Of a DNA stretch of 64,000 bases, positions 5,801 through 36,200 are shown one piece after another; within the stretch, counting starts at the first letter, position 1, and every line of letters begins with the position of its first letter. The stretch is from a virus. The stretch is taken from positions 20,373 through 84,372 of the IMG/VR virus record IMGVR_UViG_3300032116_000104; one strand, given 5' to 3'. The notes beneath the pieces are model-generated. The model saw only the letters and a list, made by a program, of their open reading frames with translations, was not told the DNA's origin and did no database searches. The translations under genes were made by a program, and so were the position numbers.

Positions 5801-8732
5801 CGCCATTAACACGGGCATTGATGTCATCAATCTCTTGTTGTATTTGTGATTTTGTAATGTTGTCCCTGGATGACGGGTCTTTTGTACTGCGCGCCTTCTT
5901 CAGGCGTTCCCAAATTCTGCTTCTTCTTTCTTTCCTTACCGTATTATTGAACTTCTTGCCGTCTGGACGCTTTGATGGCTCGGGCCCAGCAGGAGCATCA
6001 GCGGGCCGCCTCTCTGGCTGTGGCGATACTGGGCGAGGAGCGCTAGGCACAACATCCAGTTCGTCCACTATGTCTGGGTCATTGACAACAGATTCTGGGG
6101 TGTCTGGTCTTGACGCTGGCTCAACACCAGGCGACTCTCTGCGCCGTCTCTCACGACGCAGTTGAATCATCTTCCTCATATCTGAGGCAATGTCACGGAA
6201 ACTCTTCTCAAGCGTGTCGTCGCCAAAGTCTCTGTACCCATCGGCGCGGGCGTCTAGAGCCCTCGCAAGAATCTCTAATTCGCGGTCGTTGAGTTGCCCG
6301 AGGTTGTCTTTTCCGAACGATTGCTTGATGTAGAAGTCAATAAAGTCTTTGCGCTGCTGATGCACCTTTGAGCGGCTTCTGGCTCTCTTCATAATCTTTG
6401 AATAGAGTTCCTGCATCTCTTCTGGGGTCATTGACTCAAGACCGTCAATCTCCCCCATGCTGAATCCGCCTGGAGCCCAATTATCTCTGCCCCCAGATAG
6501 CGCGGCAGGTACTTGTGGTGTCGGTACTCCTAGTTCTTCGGCAAGGTCTGGAGCGACGCTCGCTGGAGGTGCTGCTGGAGATACGGGGGGTTCATAACTC
6601 TGGGCAACCCTAGGCTTCGGACGCTCCATGAACTCAATGGCATCATCAACCTGCTCGCCAGAAATCACGCCCCTTTTCTTCAGTGCAAATAGTTCTGCAG
6701 TTGTTTCAAGGTAGGCGACAGAACGAGCATCTTGAATTGTAGAGGCAGATTCACCGCCTTGAATTGCTGCCGCAATTTCCATTTGCTCCCTGTAAGACCT
6801 TTTTCCAGCAAGCAGGTCAACTTTTTGAGCAATAAGTTGCTCTATATCGCTTCCAGCGTATTTTGATGTATCAACACCGCCAGTAAGTGCATCCATAACC
6901 ATCTCGCTAATTTCGGCGTTTGTCATGTCATTAGTTATGACTCCAGCGCCTCTTAGGAAGTCCTCAACCTGCTCCATTTGCAAAACGTGACCGAATTCGT
7001 GGTACACAAAGTGAGTACCCCTCTCGGTAAATCCACCTTCTGCTGCTGCCAAGTCAATTGCGAACTTTGAGGAATAGTCTTGGAGAAGTTTTAGTTCGGC
7101 TGCAGCACGAGCAACCGCCATGGCGTTTTCCGCATCAGTGCCCTCTGTTCCTTCCTTTACCTGAAGGAGAAATGTCTCATCTGCCTGAAGTTTTTGAAGA
7201 GATGTTTCATCTACTTTAAGAATCTCAAGAGGATTGTACTCTATTGCATATAGCGTATTTCCTTGACCATCTGTTGTTCTTATTGCTTGCCCTTGGTCTC
7301 CAGCCTGGAAAAATGCAGTCCTGAGAACCATTTTTTGTGTAACTTCTGGATAGTCGTATGACACTTCGGCAAACGCTTCAAGTTGTCCATTGAGTTGGTC
7401 AAACATTCTCGTCGTTTGACGACCAACTAGGTCTTTGTCTGGATAATCCTGACCAGCGAGATGGCTTCGGGCATGCCTGAGCGCATCGGCATCGTTATAA
7501 CCAAGATTGCGTAACGCTGTATGTACGAAGACTGCTTCGTGTGCTCTCAGTTTCTCTTCAATAGAAGAATTTGCGGACAGGTTAATTCCGAGTTCTTGAA
7601 GGATTCTCTGTAGTTCTTGATGTTCAATTCCAAAACTTTTATTTTTGTCAACTTTAATTGACTCCGAAAACGGACTAAGAAGAAAATCGTCAATCCTAAA
7701 ATCTGGATTCATTCTTCCAGAATCAATCATTGCTTGAAACAGGCTTGTTAGTGCCGCTGTTCTATCGCCACTCATATCCACGCCAAGACTGTCGGCAAGA
7801 AGTTGAACTGTTTTCATTCTGCGCTCAATGGCGAGTTTCATACCCTCCTCACGCTGAGCAAGTGCAAGCACTTGTTCTGTGACTTGCGATGTTCTTTGGG
7901 CTGGCGGCACCCTGCCCATGACCTGGCGAGCCCTGTCAATAAAACTGGTTCTTGACCTGAGTCCTCTTGCTTCCGAAACAACCTCAGCGACATTGACGGC
8001 AGCAATGCCTACGCTGGAGAGCGTGGGTCTTCCAGAAAATGCTTGAGATATTTCAGAAATGATGTTGCCTATGTCAGCAACGGAAAGGGTGAAGCAGTTT
8101 GAGCCCTGGGCGTCCGTGAACTGGTTGGCCGCTGGAACTCCAGGAGGGCAACGCAATCTGCCTAACGCATCAACAACCATTCCAGCCCGCACGGCGGCAC
8201 GGTTCACGAGTTTTCCAGCAGGATTGCGCTCGCCTATGCTCCGCCCAAGAGCCTTGACCTCTATTGGAGTCTTGTTTATTTGACCAGTCTTAGGGTTGAT
8301 TTTGTGCTTTGTGATTTCAACTTGCGGACCATTGACCAGTGAATCTCTGGCTTCCATGAAACTGGTTTTCTTAGGGCTGACCCATCCGTAATTCGGCTCG
8401 GTATCAAGACCCTGGGAGGCCATGAATGCCTCCCTATCGGTAACCCAATGCTTGAAGAACTGCCCTGGCTTCCGCTTGGCACTCGGGTCCCAAATTATGC
8501 CAGTGCGTTCCTTGTTGGCATTTTCGCCCTGTGTTCTTTTCTTGCCGTCGGTATTGCCTTTTTTGGGCATGGCGGCAGCAGATACATTGGCGTTTAGGCT
8601 CGCCTGCTTAGAGAGTATTCCGCTGATGGCCTTGAAGGCGACCGCTCTTTCGTTGAAGTCAGGGCGTGTGCTTTCTGCCTCAAACACTCTGGGCGCATAA
8701 TAGCGATATTTGTTAAAACGCGCCCCCGTCAT
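2895..8732 (-). CDS. Giant putative virion polyprotein with HEFGH metallopeptidase motif
   Basis: 1945 residues. Residues about 540-620 contain the zincin motif HEFGH (578-582, positions 6987-7001) in the context FVYHEFGHVLQMEQ, typical of gluzincin/metzincin-like zinc peptidases. After it the protein is mostly low complexity: Pro-rich linkers, Arg/Lys-rich helices and repeated DPFADPF blocks (4190-5022). G-L-R-S-S/T-type motifs occur at 7947-7964, about 5302-5319, about 5004-5021 and twice near 4160-4210, with variants GSRSSS and GSRGTP nearby. The last ~240 residues look folded (LFLVHETPYEPEVDEDGN, then TVHFALNHIVSGH) but match no family I can name. It lies 17 nt after the 502-residue gene in the leftward head operon. 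I infer a structural polyprotein. The peptidase activity is a prediction from the motif only. Confidence 0.85.
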   Translation of the reverse strand: MTGARFNKYRYYAPRVFEAESTRPDFNERAVAFKAISGILSKQASLNANVSAAAMPKKGNTDGKKRTQGENANKERTGIIWDPSAKRKPGQFFKHWVTDREAFMASQGLDTEPNYGWVSPKKTSFMEARDSLVNGPQVEITKHKINPKTGQINKTPIEVKALGRSIGERNPAGKLVNRAAVRAGMVVDALGRLRCPPGVPAANQFTDAQGSNCFTLSVADIGNIISEISQAFSGRPTLSSVGIAAVNVAEVVSEARGLRSRTSFIDRARQVMGRVPPAQRTSQVTEQVLALAQREEGMKLAIERRMKTVQLLADSLGVDMSGDRTAALTSLFQAMIDSGRMNPDFRIDDFLLSPFSESIKVDKNKSFGIEHQELQRILQELGINLSANSSIEEKLRAHEAVFVHTALRNLGYNDADALRHARSHLAGQDYPDKDLVGRQTTRMFDQLNGQLEAFAEVSYDYPEVTQKMVLRTAFFQAGDQGQAIRTTDGQGNTLYAIEYNPLEILKVDETSLQKLQADETFLLQVKEGTEGTDAENAMAVARAAAELKLLQDYSSKFAIDLAAAEGGFTERGTHFVYHEFGHVLQMEQVEDFLRGAGVITNDMTNAEISEMVMDALTGGVDTSKYAGSDIEQLIAQKVDLLAGKRSYREQMEIAAAIQGGESASTIQDARSVAYLETTAELFALKKRGVISGEQVDDAIEFMERPKPRVAQSYEPPVSPAAPPASVAPDLAEELGVPTPQVPAALSGGRDNWAPGGFSMGEIDGLESMTPEEMQELYSKIMKRARSRSKVHQQRKDFIDFYIKQSFGKDNLGQLNDRELEILARALDARADGYRDFGDDTLEKSFRDIASDMRKMIQLRRERRRRESPGVEPASRPDTPESVVNDPDIVDELDVVPSAPRPVSPQPERRPADAPAGPEPSKRPDGKKFNNTVRKERRSRIWERLKKARSTKDPSSRDNITKSQIQQEIDDINARVNGGDDGRYGPTTNLSFVREYSQENFGTTDLRELDEDQLMQLKAAVKNAADEAMRASGNEKRPDEGTFQRRKRNQALALKRFMSSIDDLADLQAVKEHGIEVIPEYGFDLSNFDREEMDEVPMRMGSRSSSRIQAVTTQRNMSREQARSVEDALSGNAPYMSSDLGLRSVSSSLRESAEIRRLLNDTRLMGSRGTPKSSDSSLLDEQVKNYMAPMLSAMEENPLLFDAVVEIDADDLGDIGDIASMTPGTEITHTGLMRGESRGLRSSSDPFADPFADPFATPIRTIATTPATTPGTYDSSDPFADPFALPEVTTPEVDTSRPRRERKKRKGGLGERLKGRALDAIAERMGLDEGEKEVAGMILDTALAMKFGPKAAITKLGLELARRGGRDVADYVVGKLVEDGKLSQRQANAITSRLDRIAPEGLPDPLKDAAVNAGRFARARIDTEKNRERARSARQGVSSAASRARGRLTREESTQNPSDPFGNPFPPPDTNDGVSRAADAGRRTMRRIRERMGMDEEPTVFDPSDPFSGRGLRSSTGRGLRSGTPKRLQPGEFKGEKTTILSDEGLEGFRTVWEIEVWDFAGEKVMFGARPEVVANNPEIKDMPLNPYVISGFPESSEEGKQAASDFIYAVTYANSEGSLDESAFVAALLYASSRGDTEAEKTLKEMARIGRQMVEESRKKLQIQREEGIRKEKEERQKWIEQVEAMDISDETKERLLRPSRDSDFSGLSVDDLFLVHETPYEPEVDEDGNLILRPSGDYGATMPMGTESTGYYYIPLNRGTVHFALNHIVSGHSARETPESSRAIVIPLREFIKHNPDALDNLYGVDTYASAAPGSGLVIPKGSFAMAGLTRESKRGEIVANLLEEMGMPREVKLSGDSSGLGWNVATAEKRISGIADELGVTNHMANAGVQAETERLRVRDVKMRLYVNELATMSENAILRLAVGDRWISSRQIPDPNRKESVV
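4160..5030 (-). repeat. DPF-rich repeats and GLRSS motifs in the giant protein
   Basis: Within the coding sequence, the unit DPFADPF or a close variant recurs: three consecutive DPFA units near 4965-5010, two near 4885-4917, DPFGNPF near 4345-4375 and DPFSGRG near 4205-4230. Each block lies within a few residues of a G-L-R-S-S motif or in a Pro/Ser linker. The pattern looks like a disordered linker array and not a folded domain. Confidence 0.7.
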
Positions 8733-10353: not shown

Positions 10354-13300
10354 TTAGAGGTCTTGAATCTCAACTTCTCTTCCGCGCTGATTGCGTCGGT
10401 TGACCGTTCTGGAACTCAACTCCTCAACCGTTCTGTCAATGAATGTAGCCATGGCTGCTTTAGCGAGCATGTCAAGCATGGTTGCAAACTTCTGCTGACG
10501 CTCGTTGCCTCCGATGGCACCTTGACGGTCAATGACCACCATCATGGCGTCAAGGATTTCATCAACTTCATCTCTGGTCATCAGGATGCGCCCAGCGTTG
10601 GTTCTTCTGCTGCCCAACTTGGCTGCCTCTTGACGACTGATGAGGTCTTGAAGCGCCTTGAGGGCGTCTGATGTTCTCTTGTCCTGAGCCTTGTCTGCCT
10701 CACGGATTTCCTTCGGCAGTGAGTCAAGAATATCTTTGAAGAAAGTGGCTTCTGCCTTGATTTCCGTGCGGCCCTGCTTGGAGTCGGTTGACGACCTCAG
10801 GCCTCTCGTGTTCCGCGAGCGGGCGGCCACATAATCCCTAACTTCCTGGGACACCACCCTGTTGGCATTGACTGGGACACTTGAGCGGAGACCCTCACCC
10901 ATGCGTCGGGTAATGACTTCTCCTGCTGCTGGCTCCGCGTCTGGAGTTGGGACATTGTCGTCAATGTCCAGTGGGCGGCCCTCAACTCTCCTGACAACAC
11001 CGCCAGTATCGTCAAACGCATCGTCTGAAATGTCGGCAATGTCGGCAGCAGCGCGACCCCTTCTCGGTGCAACCTCTATCTCTGGTCCATCCTTAATGAA
11101 CTTGTCATTCTTGTAATAAGTGTCCAGTCCGTTAAGGGTTCTCAAGAGTGTTTCTGCTCGCTGAATAATCTTCTCTGCTGGACCATCGGTATCGTCGGCT
11201 TCCTCGGCGTCAGCGAGGTAGTTCTTAACTCTCTGGATGGCAGCCTTGATTTGGTTCCTGCTCAGGTCTTCGCTGTCCATAATGTCAGCGATTTCATCCC
11301 AGGCCTCAGCATGGAGTTCATCAATTCTGCCCCTGTCTGAAAGTCTTGAAGCGTCGTTGACGGTCTTGTCAAGGAAGTTGTTGATTCTTCTTGAGTCGTC
11401 TCTACGCTCCGTGGTTGCGTCTTCGTCATTTGCAGGACGAGGCTTGACGGCAACTTCTTTTGGCCCCTGTTGTGGCTGGCGTTGTGTCGGCTGCACTGGG
11501 CCCCTCTCGGCACGACGAGCCCCACGCTCTGCCCTTCTTTCGTCAGAAGCCTCTCTATCAAGCACTTCCTTCATAACGCGCTCATAGTCAACTTTGCGCA
11601 TTCCACTTCTCTCTGGAGAGTGGTCTGCCATCCAGTTGAACTGTTGTTCTGCCGTCATGCCATCCCAGTTATCTGGCTTCATGCTCTGGAATGTCTTGCC
11701 CTTGCTGTCTTCCTTGGCCCTAGAGCCCATCGGGCGTCCTTTGCTGCCACTGCGACCAGTATCACCGAGTCCTGTTACGCGGATTCCACCTCCGCCAGTA
11801 TCGTCATCGCTGGTTGATGAACGCATGCCACGACCACTTGACTTCTTGGGATTGGCATCGCCAGTAATATTGCTGTACAGGGTATCAAGGGCCTTCCAGT
11901 CCTTCGCAAGAAGCGTTCCGTCCCCACGCCTGTTGTACTCCTCTCGGATTCTCATTGAGACGCCGAGGCTTCCACCCCTTGCGCTGTTCATGAAGAACAC
12001 GAGTTTCTTCTGGCGGGCCTCATCAATGTCCGCAGGAGCGCCATTGTTATTATTTGAACGAAGGCCTAGGTTGCCGCGCTTGCCAGCCTGCTGGTCTTCC
12101 CAGTTGAGGCTCACATACTTTCCGCCCTCTGATTCGGCGGCCTGGTCAATTACGCCCTGAATGTCGGAGGTAACAACTGTTCTGCCGTCTCGGCGTGGCT
12201 CTTTTGCCGACTCAATGGCGTCTTCAATCTGCTCAACCTCGTCTGGGGTGAGGTCAACTTTGCCATTCCTTGCGTTTTTAAGTTTCTCGTCAAGAGCATC
12301 AAGCGCTGCACCATTGGCAGAAAAACGCTTGAGCATTGGAATCTCGTCGCGAAGTTGTGCAATCTCATCGTCGCTGAGCGTCATTGATAGATTGTTTGCA
12401 ACTCTTCTTGTTGAAGAACGCATTCCCTCATCTGAATCGGTCCGTGACTGTTGTGCCGCCTCGCGACGACGCATTGCACGCAGTTCCGCCTTGCGAACAT
12501 CTTCACGACGCATTCCGAGAGACTCGGCCACTTCCTGGAGTGATTCACCTGCCTCGCGGCGTCTCAGAATTCGGTTTTCCGTTTTTTCTCTTTTTGCCCT
12601 TTCAAGACCTTCCTTGACGGTGGGTCTTGGTTTCCTGGCGGCGCGCGCAGTTGTGACCGCCCTGTCTTTCCCAGTCCAGTCCTTGAAAATCCTTGCCCTG
12701 GTCGCAAAATCACCTATTCCTTTATCGTCCCATGCATCAAAAACTCTTTCAGTTATTCCATCACCCCATGGGCCCATCATTTCCCTAACAGACGGGTTCT
12801 GCACTGGGAAGTCATCATCTATGCCCAGAGCGCTGGCAATTTGCTCGGCAACGATTTCCCCAAAACCGTTCAATACATCAACGAATGCCGATTCTTCTCC
12901 TTCGTCCCCAAATAGTCCATCAGACATGAGCCTGACCGCATCCTCTGCGAGAGAATCCATGCGAGAACGCATATTTTCTCTGGTAAATGGGGTGTTGGCA
13001 GCCGCATCAAAGAGTTCTTCAGTCCTGCTCCGAGACGACTCATCCAGGTCACGAATCATTGACCTTCCTGACTCCCTTTTACGCACATCAGACACTCTGT
13101 CTTTTCTGTCACGAGTTGACGACATCAGACCTCTAATGCGTGCCTTTTGCTTATCGTTTGGATTTGGACGAATGGGCAATTTTTCAATATTGCGCTCCAT
13201 GCGGTCACGCCAGTCATCCAGAAGTTCAATTATCTCATCTTTGCTGAAAGAGTCCCAGTTTCGCAGCCACTCTCCCGTTGGGTCATCTGGGTCAGGGAGA

Positions 13301-16300
13301 TACTCATTATCTGGGATGTTCGCTGCCTTGACTCTTTCCTCAAGAAGGTCACGAGCAAGGTAGGCAATATCAGTGACAGCCGTTCTATCTCCGCCACCTC
13401 CAGTGTTTCTGACACCATTTGCGGCTATGTCAATTATTGACTGACGGATACGATTTAGTTCATCGCCAATGTTTTCTGGAGTTATGTCAGTGAGAACTAT
13501 TGATTCAAAAAGTTCCATCGCTCTGTCTGCTGTGGCGGCATCCCATCCACCGCCCTGCTGCCCAGGCTGCATGAACCCCCTGATGTCACGCAACTCTTTT
13601 GACGCATCAAGTCTTGCCTGACGCGCCTGTTGTGCTGCCGCAGATGCGCGCCCTGCCTCTACGTCCCTCATATTGACGACTTCTACATCGCCAGTGCTGG
13701 AACGGACTCCTGTAGTTGGAAATTTGTTATTTAACCCATTGGTCAGGGTATTGATTTCGTCTTCTGAGAATCCAAGTTCTCTGAGTTTGCCAACAATGTC
13801 TGACTCAATTTTCTGACGCGCCTCGCGAGACTCCGTTGGGTCAATCTTGCCCTTTTCATCACGCTTGACCATTCCAGAGCCGCGCTTACCGAGGTTCTCG
13901 GTCGTGGAGCGCATTCCACTACGGCGACGCGCTGGGTTCAGGTTCTCAAGTTCTTCTTTAGAAACACCTTCAACAATGACCCTTCTTGCGGTCTTGGCGA
14001 CTTCAAGTTGTCTGGCGAGCCTGGCTTCGTCTGGGCTTGGCTTGGCTCTCTCCATGTTCATATCGTCAACAGCAAGTTTGAGAACTCTATTCATGTCCTC
14101 AAAGTTGGTAGTCCCATTCTTCATGTCACGAATGAGGCCATCAACCCAATCCTTGTCAAGGCCGCCCCTTGCCGAGTAGGCGGTTGGATAGTCTTCTAGT
14201 GACTCTTCAATATCTCTCAGAAACTCTGAAATTCTTCTGCCGCGACGGTCGGTAATTGACAGCGGTGAGTCCATTGAAGAACTCCTGAGACCACGAGCAC
14301 GATTCATGCGTGGGTCTCCTCTGGTCTCTGCAATCTCCCATGCACGGAGGTCTTCCGCTCTGACGCCAAGGATTCCAGCAAGTTCACGAACTGGCGTTCC
14401 TTCAAAGCGCTTACGCAAGATGAATTCAGCAAGAGCCCTATCGGTGTCCTGGAATCGCGGCTCCTGACCTGGCTCCCCTCGTTGCGCAAGTTGTGCTGGT
14501 GTTCGTGCTGGGATGAGGTCTTTCGCCCTCTTCTTAATTTCCTGAATTTCTAGTTTCCGCACTTCTTCGCGCGACATACCATACTCTTCAGCAACATCAT
14601 CAAGTACTTTGCCAGCAAGACGAGCATCAACAATCGCCCTGTCTCTGTCAATCTCAACCTGCATATCGTCCAGCAGCGCATCAACATCGTCTCTATCGGT
14701 TGAGGAACGAAGGCCTCTTCTTGAGCCACCCGCATCTATGGAATCAGCAAGTTGCTGAATATCCTCAAACGGACCACCACGGTCTCTTCCGTATGCAGAG
14801 AGAGTGGCTATTAAAGCCAGTCTTGCGTTGTTCTTATCGTCCTCGCTAAGAGGAGACTTTGGCCTTCTTCTGCTCGGAAAGAATTTTGTAAAATCATCTC
14901 TGTCGCCGTCAGACAGTTTTATATATTGGTCTTTAAGTGTTGAAATAAGGTCGCTTAGTTCTTCTGCGCCAGGAAATTCGTCTGGAATGTCGCCTTGCAT
15001 TACTGATGCAACTGTCCAGTCTGAACCAGGCTGCGGGGGAAAGTAATCGCCCTGTTCGCTAGGCATAAACCGCGAAAGAACCTCCCCGAGGTTTTCAAGG
15101 AGAATTTCATCTACATCATCCATTGATGTATCACCGTCATTGCCAAGACTTGCGTCAAGCGCCTCTATTGCTCGCTGAAGTGCTTTTGTCTGCTCATCTA
15201 TGGTCATTTCCGCAAAGCGGTCTCCCATTGCGTCAATAATTTCTCTTTGCTCTACGCTATTGGCCTTTGCCGTTCTTGAGCGAAGCCCATCAGGGCGACC
15301 CTTGGAGTCTCCAGCACTTTGCATGCTACGCACCATGTTACGAAGCGCATCAGAGTTTTGCTTATCCGTACTACGAACTCGCTTGTTATTTACTGAGTCA
15401 AGAACTGTGCCGAGGGCAAGAAGAGACGCAATTTGGTCGTCTTCTGACACTGCTCTCTTCCCTCTGGTTTTATACATGTCACCAAAGCGACCCTTGCCGC
15501 CAAGTTTTTCATAGGCATCCTGGACTTCACTCAGAAGGTCACTGACGCTCTCTTTGTCAACGCTCTCTGAACCATCAAGAATTTTGGATGCTGAGTAATC
15601 ACCCGATGGCGCTTCCACGGATAGAAAATCACTCATTAGTTCAGACAGGTATTCTCTGTAGAAATCAATTTCATCGTCACCAGTGGCATCAAACAATTCC
15701 AACTGGTCTTTAACGATATTTCTAAAAGCCTCTTTTCTTTCAGATGGAGACATTTTTGCCATTGATTCAATTGCTGTTCCAGAACGCAGTCCACCATCAC
15801 GACGGTTCTTGGCCTCAAGTTCGGCTTGTCGCACATCCTCGCGACGCATGTTGAGCGACTGAGCAACATCCTGTAGTGACTCCCCAGCCTCGCGGCGCTT
15901 GAGAATCTCATCGTTTGTCTTGCGCTTTGCATCGCGCTGGCGGATTGCCCGAAGTTCAGCCTTTCGCACGTCTTCGCGGCGCATGCCAAGGGACTCGGCT
16001 ACGTCCTGCAAGGACTCTCCAGCCTCACGGCGCTTCAAGATGGAGGCGTCGTCGTTGCTGTCTTTTCCACCAGATGAACGGAGACCACGACCAGTGTTGA
16101 TGCCCTGCCCCTGGGCGGCCTGAATTGCCGCCTGAGTATTTACGCGACCACGCGTTGACCTGTCGTTGACGCCTGGAATCGCAGGTCTTTGGAACGGTGT
16201 CCCTTCTTGAACGATGCCATCGCCGTCACCGTCCCAAGCGTTGGGGTCAAATCTAGCGGTTAGGCCTCTTGCGAGGCGGCGTCCTTTTCCCCCTCCGCCA

Positions 16301-17643
16301 CCACCAATCGCTCGCCCGATGCGATTGCCAAGCCCCTTCTTTAGAGTTTCAACTGCATCAATGAACTCGGGAGTGACACCAGAGGTAATCACGATTCCCT
16401 TTTCAGAGACATATGAATCTACGCGGTGGTAATCCATGATTGGGTCAAGGAGTTGCTTCGTGTGGAAAGCATTATTGATGTCAACTGGGATGACATACTC
16501 TGCTGACTTCACTTCAACTTCCTTCTCTGCCGAAGCAAGGACATCTTGGAGCATTTCCATGACATTCTTCAGTTTTGCAAGGTTGCGCTTGTTGAGCGAG
16601 CGGCCAATCTTCTCCTCAATGTCATCAAGGAAGAAGTCGTCAAAGTCCAAGTCGTCGGACTTTCCTGGCATTGGCATGAAGTCGTCTGGGTCATCCCCAA
16701 GATAGGCGTCCCCCTGCGGCTTCATTGACACAGCAAAAGCCTGTGCTGGAGATGACGGTATGGCGGGAATCTCTGGCGTGTAGACAGTCTGACTCTGGAC
16801 GCGCTCAGGCTTGCCAAACATGAATTGACCATCCTGGAAGTGGAATGCCACTCTGTATGTTGACGACTCACCGTCGCTTGTCAGTCTGTCAAAAACAACA
16901 GTGTTCTCTGTTGCGGCCCTCACGATGACGTTGGAGCCAGACCGCTTGACAAGTTCCCTTCTGAGGGCAACCATCAGCGGGTTCTCTGGGGCAGATGGAC
17001 GAACTGGGCGAACGGCCTGCTGTGGCTTCGGCGCCATTGGCTTCATCATTCCAGACGGCATTCCAGGGCTGTGCGGCATGCCTGGCATGCCCATCATTCC
17101 GTGACCCTTCTCCTCATCCGCCAGAGTAGTATCTGACTTAACCGAAATCGTGCCAGTCAGTTGGTTGGCTCCATGAAGAACTGGGGAAACCTCGTAAAGT
17201 TCCACCTCTCTGAGGATGTTGGCCTGAAGATTAGGGTCAAAAGACGCCTGAATGGTCTTGTAGCCAATTGACCACTCCTGCTCCTCACCAAAGAAGGCAA
17301 CATTGGCGAAAGCCTCACGGCCCTTCTCTGAATTGAGGTTGAACTGAACGCGAGCGTAAAGACCGCCGATTCCAGCAGCCTTCATCTTTCCTGGCAGTCT
17401 TGAGTCGGTTGGGGGAACTTCGTAAATCTCCAAAACCTTGCCGATGGGGTCATTCCAGTTGTGTCCCCAGACGACTCTTGGCTTGCGTCGCTTCAGACTT
17501 GAGTTAAAAGCACCTGGGAGAAGAACATCACCGACGCTGTCCTTGTTTCCGACGCCAGCAACGAAGCACTCAACGATGCCCTGAGCCTGGTCAACATTGA
17601 ATGTTCCAGAACTCGCTTTGAACTCAATATCAGAAAAAGACAT
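10354..17643 (-). CDS. HK97-type prohead protease fused to a giant repeat-rich virion polyprotein
   Basis: 2429 residues. Residues 1-170 match the HK97-type prohead protease (peptidase S78/U35): His61 in VVWGHNW, Ser125 in EWSIGYK and Glu148 in REVELYEVSPVLHGAN are the likely catalytic positions. A Met/Pro/Gly linker follows (about 178-215). Near residue 467-480 lies a calcium-loop-like DGDGDGIVQEG. From there on, low-complexity and helical segments alternate with at least 13 copies of G-L/M/V-R-S-S/T-T-type motifs (10786-16086) and five copies of an HTH-like unit. The usual protease is about 200-250 residues, so this is a roughly ten-fold extension. GGGAG precedes the ATG. It lies between portal and the acidic protein. 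I infer self-processing of a polyprotein at the repeated motif. Confidence 0.92.
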   Translation of the reverse strand: MSFSDIEFKASSGTFNVDQAQGIVECFVAGVGNKDSVGDVLLPGAFNSSLKRRKPRVVWGHNWNDPIGKVLEIYEVPPTDSRLPGKMKAAGIGGLYARVQFNLNSEKGREAFANVAFFGEEQEWSIGYKTIQASFDPNLQANILREVELYEVSPVLHGANQLTGTISVKSDTTLADEEKGHGMMGMPGMPHSPGMPSGMMKPMAPKPQQAVRPVRPSAPENPLMVALRRELVKRSGSNVIVRAATENTVVFDRLTSDGESSTYRVAFHFQDGQFMFGKPERVQSQTVYTPEIPAIPSSPAQAFAVSMKPQGDAYLGDDPDDFMPMPGKSDDLDFDDFFLDDIEEKIGRSLNKRNLAKLKNVMEMLQDVLASAEKEVEVKSAEYVIPVDINNAFHTKQLLDPIMDYHRVDSYVSEKGIVITSGVTPEFIDAVETLKKGLGNRIGRAIGGGGGGKGRRLARGLTARFDPNAWDGDGDGIVQEGTPFQRPAIPGVNDRSTRGRVNTQAAIQAAQGQGINTGRGLRSSGGKDSNDDASILKRREAGESLQDVAESLGMRREDVRKAELRAIRQRDAKRKTNDEILKRREAGESLQDVAQSLNMRREDVRQAELEAKNRRDGGLRSGTAIESMAKMSPSERKEAFRNIVKDQLELFDATGDDEIDFYREYLSELMSDFLSVEAPSGDYSASKILDGSESVDKESVSDLLSEVQDAYEKLGGKGRFGDMYKTRGKRAVSEDDQIASLLALGTVLDSVNNKRVRSTDKQNSDALRNMVRSMQSAGDSKGRPDGLRSRTAKANSVEQREIIDAMGDRFAEMTIDEQTKALQRAIEALDASLGNDGDTSMDDVDEILLENLGEVLSRFMPSEQGDYFPPQPGSDWTVASVMQGDIPDEFPGAEELSDLISTLKDQYIKLSDGDRDDFTKFFPSRRRPKSPLSEDDKNNARLALIATLSAYGRDRGGPFEDIQQLADSIDAGGSRRGLRSSTDRDDVDALLDDMQVEIDRDRAIVDARLAGKVLDDVAEEYGMSREEVRKLEIQEIKKRAKDLIPARTPAQLAQRGEPGQEPRFQDTDRALAEFILRKRFEGTPVRELAGILGVRAEDLRAWEIAETRGDPRMNRARGLRSSSMDSPLSITDRRGRRISEFLRDIEESLEDYPTAYSARGGLDKDWVDGLIRDMKNGTTNFEDMNRVLKLAVDDMNMERAKPSPDEARLARQLEVAKTARRVIVEGVSKEELENLNPARRRSGMRSTTENLGKRGSGMVKRDEKGKIDPTESREARQKIESDIVGKLRELGFSEDEINTLTNGLNNKFPTTGVRSSTGDVEVVNMRDVEAGRASAAAQQARQARLDASKELRDIRGFMQPGQQGGGWDAATADRAMELFESIVLTDITPENIGDELNRIRQSIIDIAANGVRNTGGGGDRTAVTDIAYLARDLLEERVKAANIPDNEYLPDPDDPTGEWLRNWDSFSKDEIIELLDDWRDRMERNIEKLPIRPNPNDKQKARIRGLMSSTRDRKDRVSDVRKRESGRSMIRDLDESSRSRTEELFDAAANTPFTRENMRSRMDSLAEDAVRLMSDGLFGDEGEESAFVDVLNGFGEIVAEQIASALGIDDDFPVQNPSVREMMGPWGDGITERVFDAWDDKGIGDFATRARIFKDWTGKDRAVTTARAARKPRPTVKEGLERAKREKTENRILRRREAGESLQEVAESLGMRREDVRKAELRAMRRREAAQQSRTDSDEGMRSSTRRVANNLSMTLSDDEIAQLRDEIPMLKRFSANGAALDALDEKLKNARNGKVDLTPDEVEQIEDAIESAKEPRRDGRTVVTSDIQGVIDQAAESEGGKYVSLNWEDQQAGKRGNLGLRSNNNNGAPADIDEARQKKLVFFMNSARGGSLGVSMRIREEYNRRGDGTLLAKDWKALDTLYSNITGDANPKKSSGRGMRSSTSDDDTGGGGIRVTGLGDTGRSGSKGRPMGSRAKEDSKGKTFQSMKPDNWDGMTAEQQFNWMADHSPERSGMRKVDYERVMKEVLDREASDERRAERGARRAERGPVQPTQRQPQQGPKEVAVKPRPANDEDATTERRDDSRRINNFLDKTVNDASRLSDRGRIDELHAEAWDEIADIMDSEDLSRNQIKAAIQRVKNYLADAEEADDTDGPAEKIIQRAETLLRTLNGLDTYYKNDKFIKDGPEIEVAPRRGRAAADIADISDDAFDDTGGVVRRVEGRPLDIDDNVPTPDAEPAAGEVITRRMGEGLRSSVPVNANRVVSQEVRDYVAARSRNTRGLRSSTDSKQGRTEIKAEATFFKDILDSLPKEIREADKAQDKRTSDALKALQDLISRQEAAKLGSRRTNAGRILMTRDEVDEILDAMMVVIDRQGAIGGNERQQKFATMLDMLAKAAMATFIDRTVEELSSRTVNRRNQRGREVEIQDL
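10786..16086 (-). repeat. Array of G-[LMV]-[RM]-S-[ST]-[ST] motifs
   Basis: The hexapeptide motif is encoded at 10786-10803, 10876-10893, 11812-11829, about 12048-12065 (GLRSNN), 12409-12426, 13114-13131 (GLMSST), 13693-13710 (GVRSST), 13900-13917 (GMRSTT), 14274-14291, 14698-14715, 15271-15288 (GLRSRT), 15775-15792 (GLRSGT) and 16069-16086 (GLRSSG). A variant GSRAKE lies near 11715. Codons differ between copies, so the peptide and not the DNA is conserved. The spacing is irregular, about 90 to 990 nt. Confidence 0.9.
12460..16045 (-). repeat. Five HTH-like units in the protease polyprotein
   Basis: Units at about 15930-16045, 15800-15910 and 12462-12580 share the pattern RREAGESLQDVAESLGMRRE followed by DVRKAELRA. 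More divergent units lie at about 14527-14640 (LDDVAEEYGMSREEVRKLE) and 14311-14440 (VRELAGILGVRAEDLRAWE). The form (helix, A-x-x-L/Y-G-M turn, second helix beginning R-x-E/D-V/L-R) resembles the HTH of resolvases and sigma region 4. Three units sit immediately before a G-L/M-R-S motif. Confidence 0.85.
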
Positions 17644-17719: not shown

Positions 17720-17742
17720 TTTCAGTAAATTATTTACTGAAA
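17720..17742 (-). promoter_or_regulatory. Palindrome over the portal stop codon
   Basis: The sequence 17720-17742 is a perfect inverted repeat (11-nt arms, single central base) that contains the portal stop codon. A second small stem, ACGC-TTAT-GCGT, follows in the 90-nt gap. No T-run follows, so it is more likely an RNA-processing or translational control element, or a late/leaky terminator, than a strong intrinsic terminator. Confidence 0.4.
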
Positions 17743-19830
17743 TGACCCTTGGACGCCAGCGTTCCACGCACGACGGGCTTCCTGTTCAGCGATTTCTGGC
17801 CTCTTCTTGCCCAAGAGGTTAGTGAACGTAGAGACGATTGAACTCCTGAAAAGCGTGCTTCGGATGTCCTCATCTGGGGCGTTGAGGGAAGTGAACATTG
17901 ACGCACTCAGTTCACCAAATGTCTCGTCATTCACTAGATTGATGCGCTCAATCTGGGAATTCACATGAGCGATGGCATCCTCTCGGGTGAATGGGGCAAT
18001 CGGTAGACGCTTCTCCGCATAGGTTTCGCGGGCATCATTCATGATGGAAGTCAGGACTGGCCTGATGTCTTCCTCAATCTGTCTAGTCCATGTCTCCCTG
18101 TTGAAGATGGAGTCAATTTCCAAGGATGCCGTGGCGAGTTGCTTCTTCGCCTTGGCTCCGCTGGCCTTTTCCAGAACGACCCTCTGTTGCCTCTCAAAGA
18201 TTCTCTCTAGGCTTCTGTCAAGAATCTGGGTCCATCTAGTGAGGGCAATATTGGACGCTTGGTCCAATTCTTGGTCCACCTTGGTTTGAATTGGCGAGTT
18301 AGCCAACGCCGACATTTGTTGTGGTGCTGGTGGCTCTTCTGTGGTGGCCATTTCGGGTGGAGCATCGTTTGGCCCCATTGGTGCTGGCGGCTCCGCTGCT
18401 TGGGCAGCAATTTGCATGGCGCCCTGCATGGTCGTTGCATCTGGCGGTCCTTCTGGGGCGGCGTCAGTTGGCGGCATTCCTGGCATTCCTGGCATTCCTG
18501 GAGCACCTGGGGCACCTGGCATCCCTGGCATCCCTGGCATCCCTGGCATTCCTGGAGCACCTGGCATCTGTGCCTGCGGACCCTCTTCCATCTTCTTCTT
18601 GGTATTGGCGATGGGGGTGAGATTCGGGTTCATGAGAAGCGAGTCAGCAAGGTCGCTCTGAACATCCTTGCGTCCAGAATTAATTCTGTACTCGTTGGTA
18701 CTGATGAGTCCATTCTGGAACTCATCCATGAGGTAGCGCTGGCGCTCCTGCTCGTACAGAATCAGGACTGGAACATCCGATGTATCAAAGTCAATGTAAT
18801 TGTTTTCATCAAGTTCGTCAAGGGCGCGACCGAGAATTTCCAGATGCGGAAGCATTGTTTCGTTCCAGAAGACTCTGTGCTCCTCTGCGGCGTTGCTGAA
18901 TGTCCTGCCCGCAGCGTTGCCAATGACCGACTCTGGCACTCCGAATGAAGCAAGAATCTCCTCTTTTGTGATTTGCCTCATCTGCATGTAGGCCGCATCA
19001 CGGGGAGACGCAGATGTGTCAACATAATCAACACCTTCGTCCGAAGAAATAACCGTTGTCTGACCCGTTCTGCTCAGGTTTCCACGGAAACGATTCTTGA
19101 TTTCCTCTTTGTCGTCCTCGTCAATTTCCCCCCTGAGGACGATTAGTCCACCAGGACGACCGTCATTCAGCAAGTAGTTTCTGTTATAGACCTTTGCAAG
19201 ATTCTCAATCTCTACGGCGACACCAGCGGACTCAAGAGGCGTCATTGAGAGGTACGGGTCAAGCGGGTGTGGCTTGCGAATCCAGACCACATCATCTGGC
19301 TTCATGATGATTGTTCTGCCGTCTGGCATGATGACCTCATAGCCAGCGACAAAGTTCTTTGGGTCTGGAATTGGCGCGGTGGACTGCGGTGGCAAAAGGT
19401 TCAGGGCGATAACGGTTCCGTCTCTGGAACGAATCTTCTCAATGAACGCACCTCTGGTGCTCATGAGAATCTGTGAGGAAAGCCTGTATCGGAAGATGAA
19501 GGAGTTCTCTCCTATGTTCGCTTTGGTATTGAAGATTTTCAACAGGGGGCTGTCCTTAGCCGCCTTGCCGCCAAGAATCTGCCCGTCAGGTGAGTTATCC
19601 TTGCGAAGAATGACTGGAAGCCTTGCCTGGTTTCCAGCGATGGCATCAATGCATCGCGACACCCAAGTGACCTTCTGCATGCCCTCGCGATAAACGCGCT
19701 CAATGTCCCATGAGTCCTTGTAGCCACGGCCTGCATAGGCGGGGTTCATTGCGATGGGGGCGCCAGGACCTATTGCCGCCTTGGAAGAACCTGAGTTCAG
19801 TGACTTATTTTGATAACTATTCCAGGCCAT
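17734..19830 (-). CDS. HK97-family portal protein with collagen-like linker and C-terminal extension
   Basis: 698 residues. Residues about 40-410 match the HK97-type portal: WVSRCIDAIAGNQARLP, a central region with DDVVWIRKPHPLDPYLSMTPL, and the conserved ILASFGVPESVIGNAAG with a following EEHRVFWNETMLPHL. The portal forms the dodecameric ring at the packaging vertex. A Gly-Met/Ala-Pro collagen-like linker (coding 18477-18570) and a Pro/Ala-rich region then lead to a ~190-residue helical C-terminal domain with QIEEDIRPVLTSIMNDARET, not part of a minimal portal (usually about 400-500 residues). Upstream ends 3 nt away, suggesting coupling. No good SD is visible. It lacks the GLRSST motif. Confidence 0.95.
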   Translation of the reverse strand: MAWNSYQNKSLNSGSSKAAIGPGAPIAMNPAYAGRGYKDSWDIERVYREGMQKVTWVSRCIDAIAGNQARLPVILRKDNSPDGQILGGKAAKDSPLLKIFNTKANIGENSFIFRYRLSSQILMSTRGAFIEKIRSRDGTVIALNLLPPQSTAPIPDPKNFVAGYEVIMPDGRTIIMKPDDVVWIRKPHPLDPYLSMTPLESAGVAVEIENLAKVYNRNYLLNDGRPGGLIVLRGEIDEDDKEEIKNRFRGNLSRTGQTTVISSDEGVDYVDTSASPRDAAYMQMRQITKEEILASFGVPESVIGNAAGRTFSNAAEEHRVFWNETMLPHLEILGRALDELDENNYIDFDTSDVPVLILYEQERQRYLMDEFQNGLISTNEYRINSGRKDVQSDLADSLLMNPNLTPIANTKKKMEEGPQAQMPGAPGMPGMPGMPGMPGAPGAPGMPGMPGMPPTDAAPEGPPDATTMQGAMQIAAQAAEPPAPMGPNDAPPEMATTEEPPAPQQMSALANSPIQTKVDQELDQASNIALTRWTQILDRSLERIFERQQRVVLEKASGAKAKKQLATASLEIDSIFNRETWTRQIEEDIRPVLTSIMNDARETYAEKRLPIAPFTREDAIAHVNSQIERINLVNDETFGELSASMFTSLNAPDEDIRSTLFRSSIVSTFTNLLGKKRPEIAEQEARRAWNAGVQGSFQ
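18477..18570 (-). repeat. Collagen-like Gly-X-Pro repeat in the portal
   Basis: About nine tandem G-M/A-P triplets form a near-perfect 9-nt period DNA repeat. A shorter, related GMPGMP segment occurs in the protease giant around 17040-17100, suggesting shared linker vocabulary in these head proteins. Confidence 0.9.
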
Positions 19831-26384: not shown

Positions 26385-27539
26385 ATGACGCGACAGCGGA
26401 TGTTTCTTGACATAGATGTGGTTGAGGCCGCGAGACAGAGGATTAGACATGTCTATGATACTTTTGATACTGTTTGCGTTCAGTTTTCTGGAGGAAAAGA
26501 CAGCACAGCGGTTCTTTACCTTGCTAAAGAAATTCATGAGGAGAGGGGACTCGGACCTGTAAAGGTCATCTTCCGTGACGAAGAGATGGTCAGCCCGCTT
26601 GTTGCCAACTACGCGATGAAGATTCGCGAATACGACTGGGTTGACATGGAGTGGTACTGCCTAACATCTGGCAGCGAGGTGTGGACTCTTGGCACTAGAG
26701 ACCCAGTTGTGCTCTGGGGTCATGAGAGGCGAGATACTGGTCGTTGGGTGCGTCCAATGCCACCTTTCGCAATCACTCCAGCGCACTTCGGAATCCCAGA
26801 TGGGCAAGCCCTGACGGAAGCAATTGATTACTACACAATGCAGGGCAAAAAGGGCAAAGTGGCCTTCATTACTGGCGTTAGGGCTGCTGAGTCAATGGTT
26901 CGCTATCGCTCTTGTGTGCAAAAATTGCACGAAAACTACATAGTTACCCCATACAGGCTCAAAAAGTCAATTCCGTTGAAATTTGCCAAAATTATCTACG
27001 ACTGGCAAATTGACGATGTATTCAAATTCATCACGGAAGAGCACAATGCCGAATATTGCGAGTATTACGACCTTGCGGCACTTACTGGCTCAAACACCAG
27101 AGTTGGCATTCCGCTCCACTCGGTCGCTATTCGCCGTATTGGTGACCTGATTGCTACCGAGCCAGAATTCTATGACAGGCTCGTGGAGATTTGGCCCAAT
27201 ATTGATGCCCAGAGGCGTTGGTGGCCAGAATTTGACATTGAGAAACTCATTGAGTACTACGCTAGCCAAGGCATTGACGGAGCGAAGGAGTGCATAGAGA
27301 CGCACTACTTGTCTGAGGATGATAAGCGACGGGCAAAGGCATATGTAGCCGACTTTAGACGCAAGCACGCCGCCGACCCTTATTCGTACCCCATGAACTG
27401 GCTCATCAGGAACATTTTGCATAACGAAATCTCCGTACATGCCGCCGCCCCAGTTGGGCCGAAGACAAAGGCACATACACTCAGAGTGAAGGCTGCACAA
27501 AAAGCCGCAGAAGAGGAAATAAATGAATATGAAGATTGA
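26385..27539 (+). CDS. PAPS-reductase-like PP-loop protein (IbrA/DUF3440-type)
   Basis: 384 residues. The PP-loop SGGKDS (35-40) sits in CVQFSGGKDSTAVLYLA, followed by VIFRDEEMVS and a conserved GVRAAESMVRY. The enzyme class adenylates a substrate with ATP, as PAPS reductases, DndC and tRNA thiolases do. There is no C-terminal CxxC pair typical of assimilatory reductases, so a nucleotide or DNA modification role is more likely than sulfate assimilation (inference). It is flanked by ParB-like genes on both sides and overlaps the second by 17 nt. Confidence 0.85.
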   Translation: MTRQRMFLDIDVVEAARQRIRHVYDTFDTVCVQFSGGKDSTAVLYLAKEIHEERGLGPVKVIFRDEEMVSPLVANYAMKIREYDWVDMEWYCLTSGSEVWTLGTRDPVVLWGHERRDTGRWVRPMPPFAITPAHFGIPDGQALTEAIDYYTMQGKKGKVAFITGVRAAESMVRYRSCVQKLHENYIVTPYRLKKSIPLKFAKIIYDWQIDDVFKFITEEHNAEYCEYYDLAALTGSNTRVGIPLHSVAIRRIGDLIATEPEFYDRLVEIWPNIDAQRRWWPEFDIEKLIEYYASQGIDGAKECIETHYLSEDDKRRAKAYVADFRRKHAADPYSYPMNWLIRNILHNEISVHAAAPVGPKTKAHTLRVKAAQKAAEEEINEYED

Positions 27540-33255: not shown

Positions 33256-36200
33256 ATGGCTGACGAAAAAGTCACAATCAAGATTGAAGTCAACTCTGAC
33301 GTTCGTGGCGCAAAAAGAGTCAATCGGGAACTCAAAGAAATTGCCCGCACTGCCGACCGCATCAATGCCCATTCTGGCATGCGGAGCAGTACAAAAAACC
33401 TCACTGGAATGCTCAATGGGCAGCAAGTGGTCTGGAAGAAGCACTTTGATGAACTTGACAAGTTGACCAAGATGTTCGGCAAGGGCATGCAAATGGGCAT
33501 GAAACTTGCCACCAAAGCCGTTATTGCCGAACTAGCGATTCTCAGCGTCTCGCTCGTTGGTATCCATGGACTGTTTGCCGCTGGTCAGGGGATAATGAAA
33601 GCCTACCGATGGGCCCTTGATGCCACTGGCGCTGCGGCTACTGGACTTGTTTTTGCCTTGTCAACAGTTGCTGCTGCATTGAGAGAACAACAGGCGGCAA
33701 TGTACGCCTACAAGACCAATACTCTTCCGCAGTTCGGCTCTGGGCTGAACCAGACGAGAGTTCTGATGAGGGCTCTTAGTTCCGACAGTGAGATGGCTTT
33801 CATCGGTGTTGAGAATCTCAACAAGGCATTTGCTGCAGTATCCAAGAACTCAACATGGACCGCAAATAGTCAGCAACTCCTTAGAGGACTCATGGACTTT
33901 GCGGCTGCTGGTCAGCCACTTGAGCAAGGTGTTGAGAAGGCTGGAGAACTCATCGGCTTGCTCCAGGACACCAAGTCATCCTGGGGTTCTATCAAGAAAG
34001 CAGCCGAAGCATCAAGCCCTGCAATGAAAAAGGCTCTTGAAGAAGCCAAGAAGCAGGGAATCAATACAAGAGAAGAACTCATCAATGCCATCAATAGCGG
34101 CCAGTTGTCTTCGCTAGGTGGAGTGAGTGGTCAGTTTGACGCCGTGAGCGGAACCCTCATTAACCAACTCAAGGGGTACTTCAACATTGTTCGCGGAAGA
34201 TTTGCTGACCTTGGACAGCAGTTTCTTGCGCCAGTCAAAGAGGCCATGAGCGAGTTGATGAACATCTTCAATAGAATGTTCATCAGAACAATCCCAGCCC
34301 TCTCCAAGAGGGGAATCAACTCGTTCACTGATGGAATTGTCAATGTTGCAGAAAAGATAGAAAGACTCTATTCAAAAATTATCTACCAATACACTGAAAG
34401 AACTGAGGGAGTTTTTGAGGGCATTTCCAAATGGTGGGCAAAGTTCAGACAGGGATGGGAAGACACAAAAGAAGCCCTAAGACCGTTTATTGAGGGTGCT
34501 CGCGTCATTGAGGACGCCCTAAAGGCGGCGTTCCAGCCCATCAAGGAGACTGTCTCTGGAAAGTTTGGCGACTTCAATGAATGGCTTCAGGAGAACAGGG
34601 GGGAAGTCGTTGAGTTTGGCGACAAGATGGGCAAACTTGTTTCTGCGATATTGAAACTTTTTGGGGAAATTGGCAAACTTTATAGAACCCTTCTGCCGTT
34701 CATTAACAGACTCGTTGACGGACTTACACAGGTAGTTAACCTGACATCCAGCATGTTTGGCATGTTTAGTGGCATGGGGCAATTTGGCGGTCTATTTGCC
34801 CTACTTGGAATGCGTCAACTTGGAGGAAAGTTGGCTGGCACCAGAGGTGGATTTATAGGTGTGGGTGCTGGCGCTGCTGGTTCTGCACCTGCTGGAAGTT
34901 ATGGACCATATGGTTCAAACTTCGCCACAATGCAGCAACAGGCAGCACAAAGACAAGGCATGGGGGTAAGAAGCGGTGGCCTGAGGAGCAGCACTGGCGC
35001 TGCCGCTGCCGCTGGCACTGCTGGTCGTGGTGGTTTTAGAGGATTCATGTCAAATGTCGGTACAAGATTCGGCAACTATGCATCACAGCAGTTCGGCCCC
35101 ATGGACATGGCTGAGTACAGGAGAATAGAGAAAGGGGCGCAACAGCCGACTGCATTTCAAAGAAGCAGCACCATGCAGGCCCTAAGAAGGGCAAGATACA
35201 GAAACCAGGGGCTTCAAAAATTCCAGCAAAGCGGTGGAGCAAAACTGGGAGTCGGCATGGGACTTGGAATGCTGAGTGCCGTCGCTCCAGCCGAGATGCA
35301 GGGTGCCCTTGCGCTCGGCGGCATGGCTGCCCAAATCAATCCGATGCTTGGTTTGGCAGTCGGCGGCCTTGGTGCCGCCATGAATGCCCAGGGTGGCTTG
35401 AGTGGAGCGCTGGCTGGCGCTGGCGGTGGAGCCGCACTCGGTGCCATGGTTGGAGGACCAGTTGGGGCAATGGTCGGAGCCGCTCTTGGTGGCATTGCTG
35501 GAGCAATTAGGGGCTGGACCAATAAGAGCAAAACACAAGCAAAAATGGCCAGGAAAGCAGTTACTGATACCCTAACAAGCATTACTACTGGTGCTGCAGA
35601 GTTTGCTATTGCCGAACTGATGGCTGGCCCAGGGAGGGGTGCTAACCCAATCAGGGAAGCACTGCAAAAACAAAAGTCGCAAGCACAGTCATTCGGAGAT
35701 GTTGTTCGTTCTGGAATGGGAAACAGGGCGCAAAACAAAGAACTATTGCAGGACCTTTTTGACAATCAACTAACGCTTGGCATCAAAATCACTGAGAGCC
35801 AATTGAAAGACATGATGGAAAAGCCAGATACCGCAGTATCTGAGTACATCAAGCAGACCAATGCCCAGATGGGTGCAAGCGAAATTGTCATGGACTCTTT
35901 CAATACCAAAATGCAGTTCTTGCAGAATTACACTGGTCAAACAGAAGACCAAATTCTTGCGCTAGCAAAGACCATGGGAGTAAATCTCCTTGACGGAACC
36001 CAGACAGCGATGGAAGCCCTTGAGGAAATGGGCAAATTGCAAGTCAAGACAGCGGAACAAATGAAAAACGTCTTCACAGAGGCATACGCATCTGCTGAAG
36101 GCGTGTTTGACAAAATCATCAAGCAAAAAGAAGCACCTAAAATTCTTGATGAAATGGCGAAAGCATTGTCTGGCAAACTTCAGCGTGGTGGTGGAGAGAA

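What the first reader, a model, noticed from the sequence alone, without database searches (positions are those of the whole stretch)
10786..16086. Recurrent G-[LMV]-[RM]-S-[ST]-[ST] motif in the prohead-protease giant
At least 13 copies of one short motif occur in a 2429-residue protein that begins with an HK97-type protease. They fall between linkers and small domains. Conservation is at the peptide level. The simplest reading is a processing site that lets the protease cut its own polyprotein into many pieces (inference). HK97-type proteases normally remove only a short segment of capsid protein.
Basis: partly seen in the sequence, partly recalled or inferred. Interest (0 to 1): 0.88.

Follow-up and report, generated by a model that had tools for sequence, protein, structure and literature searches.

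The report
Phage polyprotein with coded cut sites
A family of uncultured tailed phages strings many small cargo proteins into giant proteins separated by one short peptide 'word', and each phage lineage uses its own version of that word in all of its giant virion proteins, as expected if a phage protease cuts the giants into separate parts.

Summary
The repeat is real, not chance, and wider than reported. G[LMV][RM]S occurs 13 times in the 2429-aa S78 protease protein (0.3 expected) and the exact hexapeptide 8 times (0.005 expected). The word recurs in other structural proteins of the genome: the 1945-aa protein, two proteins beside the capsid gene, and the tape measure protein. Synonymous codons vary fully, so selection acts on the peptide. 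In relatives, sites at matching positions remain but the word changes as a set: GMASR, GLAS[ST], GFSSST, xFASTS, [RG][LF]SSG, SSRSxR, LRSSG. Sites delimit modules: homology-block ends cluster at them, AlphaFold2 puts all five tested copies in disordered linkers, and known domains (zeta toxin, ArdC-N/metallopeptidase, RNase_T) lie between or beyond sites. The cargo matches 'polyvalent proteins'. Best reading: a lineage-specific processing site that divides virion polyproteins, probably cut before the serine. The cutter is not proven. The fused S78 domain is the leading candidate, but the capsid protein lacks the word and a tail protein has it; a conserved HExxH domain is the rival. No cleavage data exist.

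The parts
10354..17643 (-). 2429-aa polyprotein: S78 protease (res 1-185), conserved region to about res 460, EF-hand-like tag, then 14 site-delimited segments
   Evidence: ORF; Pfam/PHROG; standalone ~440-450 aa S78 forms in L183, L185, L043
17050..17643 (-). S78 (HK97-type) head maturation protease domain; H in WGHNW and S in EWSIGYK present in all aligned relatives
16168..16254 (-). shared tag RFDPNAWDGDGDGIVQEGTPFQRPAIPG (EF-hand/dockerin-like loop) just ahead of the first site
   Evidence: same tag in the 596-aa and 1195-aa proteins and in most relatives
16069..16086 (-). site 1 GLRSSG (res 520)
15775..15792 (-). site 2 GLRSGT (res 618)
15271..15288 (-). site 3 GLRSRT (res 786)
14698..14715 (-). 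site 4 GLRSST (res 977)
14275..14292 (-). site 5 GLRSSS (res 1118)
13900..13917 (-). site 6 GMRSTT (res 1243)
13693..13710 (-). site 7 GVRSST (res 1312)
13399..13416 (-). weaker copy GVRNTG (res 1410)
13114..13131 (-). site 8 GLMSST (res 1505)
12409..12426 (-). site 9 GMRSST (res 1740); in pLDDT<50 segment
12049..12066 (-). site 10 GLRSNN (res 1860), before the NNGAP domain; matching site in relatives reads GMASRN, GLASTN, GFSSST, GFASSG; in pLDDT<50 segment
11812..11829 (-). site 11 GMRSST (res 1939); in pLDDT<50 segment
10876..10893 (-). site 12 GLRSSV (res 2251); in pLDDT<50 segment
10786..10803 (-). site 13 GLRSST (res 2281), before the conserved C-terminal domain; matching site in relatives reads GLASTS, GFASTS, GFSSST, GLRSAG; in pLDDT<50 segment
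2895..8732 (-). 1945-aa polyvalent-type protein with 5 sites: res 257 (7947-7964), 1140 (5298-5315), 1238 (5004-5021), 1510 (4188-4205), 1518 (4164-4181)
6987..7001 (-). HEFGH (res 578-582) of a zincin-like domain; H578, E579, H582 and Q585 invariant in 21 homologues; rival cutter
33256..37251 (+). tape measure protein with sites at res 41 (33376-33393), 570 (34963-34980) and 575 (34978-34995); the N-terminal site follows the dialect in relatives
17734..19830 (-). portal protein, immediately upstream of the polyprotein; no site

Best explanation
The motif is a proteolytic processing site, used across several virion polyproteins of this phage family, that divides them into separate cargo modules during virion assembly or delivery. 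Architecture: an N-terminal piece specific to each polyprotein (in the giant, an S78 protease), then a shared EF-hand-like tag or a Cys-containing counterpart, then cargo modules joined by flexible linkers. Each linker carries the word G-[LFM]-x-S-[S/T/G/R]-x. The version of the word is specific to the phage lineage and shared by the polyproteins of that genome. Inferred cut: just before the invariant Ser (GLR|SST). The inferred cutter is the phage's S78 protease, acting in cis and in trans; about 60% of the probability here is on S78, the rest mainly on the conserved HExxH domain of the 1945-aa protein. Shown by computation: the motif, its peptide-level selection, its spread over proteins, the dialects, the module boundaries and the linker location. 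Inferred: that it is cut, where, when and by what.
For: (1) Strong excess and free synonymous codons. (2) The same word in 5 polyproteins of the genome, 24 copies against 2.2 expected; unsupervised pattern search returns GLRS as top pattern (15 against 0.5) and finds a dialect word as top pattern in 11 of 16 records. (3) At matching sites position is kept while the word changes with the lineage. (4) Homology-block ends fall within 15 aa of a site in 29% of cases against 10.6% for shifted sites, max 14.7% in 500; one 142-aa module runs site to site in two unrelated parent proteins. (5) All 5 tested sites lie in pLDDT<50 linkers. (6) RNase_T (G004), ArdC-N/MPTase (G006) and zeta toxin (G000) lie between or beyond sites. 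(7) Standalone S78 relatives L183 and L185 show no enriched motif in their loci. (8) HK97 (S104) and P1 (S121; PMC9024508) mature capsid proteins begin with Ser; P1 Pro also cuts an internal antirestriction protein (PMC12810830).
Against: No direct cleavage data. The major capsid protein, the standard S78 substrate, has no dialect-matched site (permutation p=0.73). The tape measure protein, a tail component, has one, which a purely intra-head protease would not reach. The S78 domain is about 75-83% identical across dialects, so few residues could encode the specificity change. Covariation of the dialect with S78 beyond phylogeny is weak (partial Mantel 0.195, p=0.08) and other virion genes score as high.
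Confidence: 0.66

Rival explanations
1. Processing site cut by the zincin-like HExxH peptidase of the 1945-aa polyvalent protein (before packaging, in the virion or after injection) rather than by S78.
For: H578, E579, H582 and Q585 are invariant in 21 homologues. The domain is in the orthologue of 15 dialect-bearing records aligned and is not detected in the two motif-less marine loci L183 and L185. It evolves fast, like the dialect; partial Mantel 0.40, p=0.002 against 0.195 for S78. A cytoplasmic enzyme could reach the tape measure protein. Iyer et al. proposed self-processing for such domains (PMC5512222).
Against: Covariation does not single it out: baseplate genes and other regions score as high. 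The zincin fold was not confirmed (no Pfam hit; Foldseek uninformative). L183 and L185 loci are only 20 kb, so absence there is weak.
Confidence: 0.22
2. The motif is a docking or packaging tag (binding a capsid, scaffold or chaperone partner), not a cut site.
For: Fits many copies across several virion proteins and lineage-specific co-evolution with one partner.
Against: A tag needs one or a few copies per protein; here a copy sits at nearly every module junction, including both flanks of 142-aa modules. It is present in head cargo and in the tape measure protein. A separate shared element, the DGDGDG/TPFQRP loop, already looks like the common tag.
Confidence: 0.08
3. The motif is a site of another modification, such as O-glycosylation or phosphorylation of Ser/Thr in linkers.
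For: Ser/Thr-rich flexible linkers; kinase-like cargo in the family.
Against: The hydrophobic and Gly positions are also fixed, and one dialect (GMASR) has a single Ser and no Thr; no dedicated transferase was identified.
Confidence: 0.03
4. Neutral linker sequence copied by recombination at module junctions, without a function.
For: Modules are clearly shuffled between polyproteins.
Against: Copies differ at most synonymous positions, including disjoint Ser and Arg codon families, while all copies in a genome share the same word and matching sites switch together. The site is also kept in the tape measure protein, which is not a module string.
Confidence: 0.03

Closest known systems
Polyvalent proteins of phages and conjugative elements (Iyer et al. 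2017, PMC5512222)
   Same: Very long multidomain proteins among late structural genes carrying zincin MPTase, ArdC-N, zeta/AAA, nuclease and HTH domains; Iyer et al. suggest processing by MPTase or assemblin-like peptidases.
   Different: Here a genome-wide, lineage-specific junction word is present, and the HK97-type protease is N-terminal to the cargo; Iyer et al. report the assemblin-like peptidase always at the C terminus. In the passages read, no common cleavage word is described.
Multi-substrate prohead proteases with a consensus, such as SPN3US gp245 (AXE; PMC10052503)
   Same: One short consensus recurring in several virion proteins; some substrates have several sites; internal ejected proteins are processed.
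   Different: That motif ends in Glu and is used in the capsid protein; here the fixed residue is Ser, the capsid protein lacks the word, a tail protein has it, and the candidate protease is fused to the largest substrate.
Phage P1 Pro protease with DarA and gp23 (PMC9024508, PMC12810830)
   Same: A head protease removes the capsid N-terminus (mature Ser-Val-Ala...) and trims an internal antirestriction protein.
   Different: Single cuts near N termini, no site array, separate protease.
HK97 gp4/gp5 (S78 protease, delta domain)
   Same: Protease family and capsid fold; mature capsid protein starts at Ser104.
   Different: HK97 protease is a small standalone protein acting on the capsid delta domain (general knowledge).
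Cultured actinophage relatives (Gordonia phages GMA6 and DalanDe, Brevibacterium phage Cantare, Streptomyces phage Gilgamesh)
   Same: Portal and S78 domain relatives at 38-44% identity, with large proteins between portal and protease.
   Different: No enriched recurrent word in their structural regions; no EF-hand-like tag or C-terminal cargo domain of this type.

Membership tests
HK97-type S78 head maturation protease | Sequence match to the family | tested here: met
   PF04586 45 bits against cutoff 21; PHROG 80 E=4.5e-29
HK97-type S78 head maturation protease | Candidate catalytic His and Ser conserved | tested here: met
   WGHNW and EWSIGYK present in all aligned relatives; their assignment as catalytic rests on family knowledge, not tested
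HK97-type S78 head maturation protease | Removes the N-terminal delta region of an HK97-fold capsid protein in the same genome | not testable with these tools
   HK97-like capsid protein present with about 100 extra N-terminal residues; cleavage unknown
Polyvalent proteins (Iyer et al. 2017) | Multiple conflict or effector domains in one polypeptide | tested here: met
   Zeta_toxin in the 596-aa protein; ArdC-N, MPTase-PolyVal, zeta toxin and pentapeptides in the G006 protein; RNase_T in G004; several HExxH motifs per protein. For the 2429-aa giant itself only S78 and HTH-like repeats were recognised
Polyvalent proteins (Iyer et al. 2017) | Encoded with late structural genes | tested here: met
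   Located between portal and major capsid genes
Polyvalent proteins (Iyer et al. 2017) | Packaged in the virion and delivered to the host | not testable with these tools
   No proteomics
Multi-substrate prohead protease system (T4/phiKZ/SPN3US type) | One consensus shared by several virion proteins | tested here: met
   24 copies against 2.2 expected in G000
Multi-substrate prohead protease system (T4/phiKZ/SPN3US type) | Consensus present in the major capsid protein | tested here: not met
   Own-dialect scan of 16 capsid proteins, permutation p=0.73
Multi-substrate prohead protease system (T4/phiKZ/SPN3US type) | Cleavage at the consensus | not testable with these tools
   Needs mass spectrometry
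Zincin-like MPTase self-processing polyvalent protein | Conserved HExxH active-site helix | tested here: met
   Invariant H578, E579, H582 in 21 homologues
Zincin-like MPTase self-processing polyvalent protein | Zincin fold | tested here: inconclusive
   AF2 mean pLDDT 56, no PDB match at E<=0.001; no Pfam peptidase hit

The most novel reading that the evidence does not exclude
A phage polyprotein strategy comparable in logic to polyproteins of eukaryotic viruses: an HK97-type protease is translated as the N-terminal part of a giant precursor with a dozen or more of its own cut sites, and also cuts several other precursors that carry antirestriction and toxin-like cargo plus the tape measure protein. 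The cut-site word drifts as a lineage-specific code, rewritten in concert at about 15-35 sites in each genome.
Probability: 0.42. Interest if true: 0.88.

Novelty: new variant of a known kind. Interest (0 to 1): 0.76.

Why it matters
If right, dialect words allow the cargo proteins of phage polyvalent giants to be read off from sequence alone in a large uncultured phage family (548 relatives of the protease domain matched in one scan of IMG/VR). It would explain how very large proteins could be packaged and delivered as small active parts. It would also give a natural series of at least eight protease/substrate specificity pairs on a protease domain that is 75-83% identical, which suits the study of how a protease and dozens of its sites change together.

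Tried and rejected
(a) Capsid protein as carrier of the same site: the pattern K[GS]LGS near residue 92 looks similar, but scans with each genome's own dialect give p=0.73, and the resemblance is shared by homology whatever the dialect; rejected. (b) Identifying the cutter by covariation: dialect distance against S78, zincin, portal, terminase, capsid and all other shared genes; several unrelated virion genes score as high as either candidate; inconclusive. (c) EM motif search on the giant alone was captured by low-complexity Met/Pro/Gly segments and was replaced by fixed-position pattern counting. (d) Foldseek on both models gave no useful match. (e) Dialect in cultured relatives: none found in the fetched 24-40 kb regions. 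(f) A GLMSRS hit in the tail sheath (window 31466-31483) and a GLMSSS in an 88-codon reading frame at 18059 are single hits judged to be chance. (g) Literature searches found no description of such junction words; the library holds only open-licence papers.
Full report
What was checked. The window is positions 20373-84372 of an 84,372-base virus record. The genome encodes an HK97-like capsid protein left of the window, a portal protein, and a tail sheath and terminase, so it is a myovirus. The 2429-aa ORF at 10354-17643 (minus) begins with an S78 head maturation protease.

The motif is not private to the giant. The same word is in the 1945-aa protein downstream (5 copies), in a 596-aa protein just before its zeta-toxin domain (Pfam E=3e-13), in an 1195-aa protein (2 copies), and in the tape measure protein on the other strand at residues 41, 570 and 575. 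Over the genome, 24 copies stand against 2.2 expected. Codons at these copies are free: four Gly codons, TCN and AGY for Ser, CGN and AGR for Arg. This excludes a DNA-level repeat and recent copying.

Dialects. A scan of IMG/VR found 548 relatives of the protease domain and kept 80 loci. Their S78 proteins are often giants too, up to at least 4421 aa. Most lack GLRSST but each has its own recurrent word: RGMASR, GLAS[STR], G[FL][SA]S[STR], xFAS[TS]S, GLSSG, RFSSG, KLSSG, xLRSSG, GL[AR]S[ST]T, SSRSxR, and G[LF]xSxR in a marine contig. The word is shared by several polyproteins of each genome. The hand-written dialect expressions were set after looking at the data, but the unsupervised pattern count returns the dialect as top pattern in 11 of 16 records, far above shuffles; in the others collagen-like repeats rank first. 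Across 60 giant tails of 800 aa or more (partly redundant), a generic form of the word occurs 368 times against 27 expected.

Concerted change at fixed places. In aligned giants, the site before the NNGAP domain reads GLRSNN, GMASRN, GLASTN, GFSSST, GFASSG in different records, and the site before the C-terminal domain reads GLRSST, GLASTS, GFASTS, GFSSST, GLRSAG. The N-terminal site of the tape measure protein also follows the genome's dialect when scored with sites from the other proteins (none of 5000 permutations as good), whereas capsid, portal and terminase do not (p=0.73, 0.13, 0.65).

Sites mark modules. Ends of local homology blocks among 52 polyproteins lie within 15 aa of a site in 29% of cases, against 10.6% for circularly shifted sites (maximum 14.7% of 500); median distance is 33 against 96. 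A 142-aa segment of one S78 giant (G014 residues 531-672) matches, site to site, a 142-aa segment of an unrelated 3212-aa protein of another phage (G001 residues 1452-1593). An ArdC-N/MPTase module is the last segment of the S78 giant in G004 but lies between two sites of a different polyprotein in G006. A domain inside the giant in some phages is at the C terminus of a separate protein in others, including G000. An AlphaFold2 model of residues 1735-2429 (15-sequence alignment, mean pLDDT 71) shows confident domains separated by disordered stretches, and all five sites (1740, 1860, 1939, 2251, 2281) fall in stretches below pLDDT 50, 28% of the residues; if sites were placed at random this would happen about 0.2% of the time (0.28 to the fifth power).

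Architecture. In nearly all polyproteins the sites start only after a shared element: FDPNAWDGDGDGIVQEGTPFQRP (an EF-hand/dockerin-like loop) or, in the 1945-aa family, RCPPGTPAANRFT...C. Of 41 proteins with such an element 36 carry sites, against 39 of 357 without (Fisher p = 7e-25). Standalone S78 proteins of about 440-450 aa exist (L183, L185, L043). L183 and L185 show no enriched word and no HExxH protein in the fetched 20 kb. A plausible history is that cargo was added behind a tag to an ordinary S78 protein (inference).

Mechanism. A protease site explains these facts best: many copies, at junctions, in flexible linkers, with a drifting but genome-wide coherent specificity, in proteins whose modules make sense as separate parts. 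The invariant Ser suggests a cut before it; mature HK97 capsid protein starts at Ser104 and mature P1 gp23 at Ser121 (PMC9024508). P1 Pro also trims the internal protein DarA (PMC12810830), and SPN3US gp245 cuts many internal proteins at AXE (PMC10052503), so head proteases processing ejected cargo are known. The fused S78 domain is the natural cutter. Difficulties: the capsid protein lacks the word, the tape measure protein has it, and S78 is nearly constant across dialects. The HExxH domain of the 1945-aa protein (invariant H578, E579, H582, Q585) is the main rival. Covariation tests did not decide. No mass spectrometry is available, so cutting itself is inferred.

Relation to known systems. 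The cargo fits polyvalent proteins (PMC5512222): Pfam MPTase-PolyVal, ArdC-N, zeta toxin and pentapeptides in G006, RNase_T in G004, several HExxH domains per protein. Iyer and colleagues suggested processing by MPTase or assemblin-like peptidases, the latter always C-terminal; here the head protease is N-terminal and a common lineage-specific junction word exists, which I found described nowhere in the papers searched. I rate it a new variant of a known kind.

Limits. Hosts are unknown; the nearest cultured relatives infect actinobacteria at 38-44% identity for protease and portal. Several records are fragments. Related records are not independent, so counts over records overstate the evidence.

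Noticed in passing
16168-16254 (-); also 596-aa and 1195-aa proteins in the left flank (L007): An EF-hand/dockerin-like peptide FDPNAWDGDGDGIVQEGTPFQRPAIPG is shared by most motif-bearing polyproteins of the family, just ahead of the first site; it may be a common anchoring or packaging element.
   Followed up: partly
8050-8160 (-), residues 192-216 of the 1945-aa protein: An element RCPPGxPAANxFTxxxGxxCF with two invariant Cys occurs in all aligned homologues of the 1945-aa protein and seems to take the place of the EF-hand-like loop.
   Followed up: partly
about 12460-16000 (-), giant residues near 540-610, 1000-1110 and 1690-1730: At least four copies of a helix-turn-helix-like peptide (ILKRREAGESLQDVAESLGMRREDVRKAELR; Pfam Sigma70_r4/HTH-like) in different site-delimited segments, suggesting small DNA-binding modules.
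   Followed up: no
L007:12851-14638 (-), left of the window: 596-aa protein with DUF3721 Cys motifs at its N terminus, the EF-hand-like loop, one GLRSST site and a zeta-toxin kinase domain after it.
   Followed up: partly
L007:15008-18592 (-), left of the window: 1195-aa protein whose C-terminal domain is homologous to a segment inside the S78 giant of other relatives, a module moved between polyproteins.
   Followed up: partly
L183, L185 (marine metagenome-assembled contigs): S78 domain 76-77% identical but standalone (about 440 aa), without recurrent word or HExxH protein in the fetched 20 kb: a natural comparison without the cargo.
   Followed up: partly
17734-19830 (-), portal residues about 420-455: Portal C-terminal extension with collagen-like GMPGMPG repeats; several relatives also encode large GxTG-repeat proteins.
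   Followed up: no
26385-27539 (+): Phosphoadenosine phosphosulfate reductase-like gene (PHROG 2302, E=1.6e-75) between ParB-like genes.
   Followed up: no
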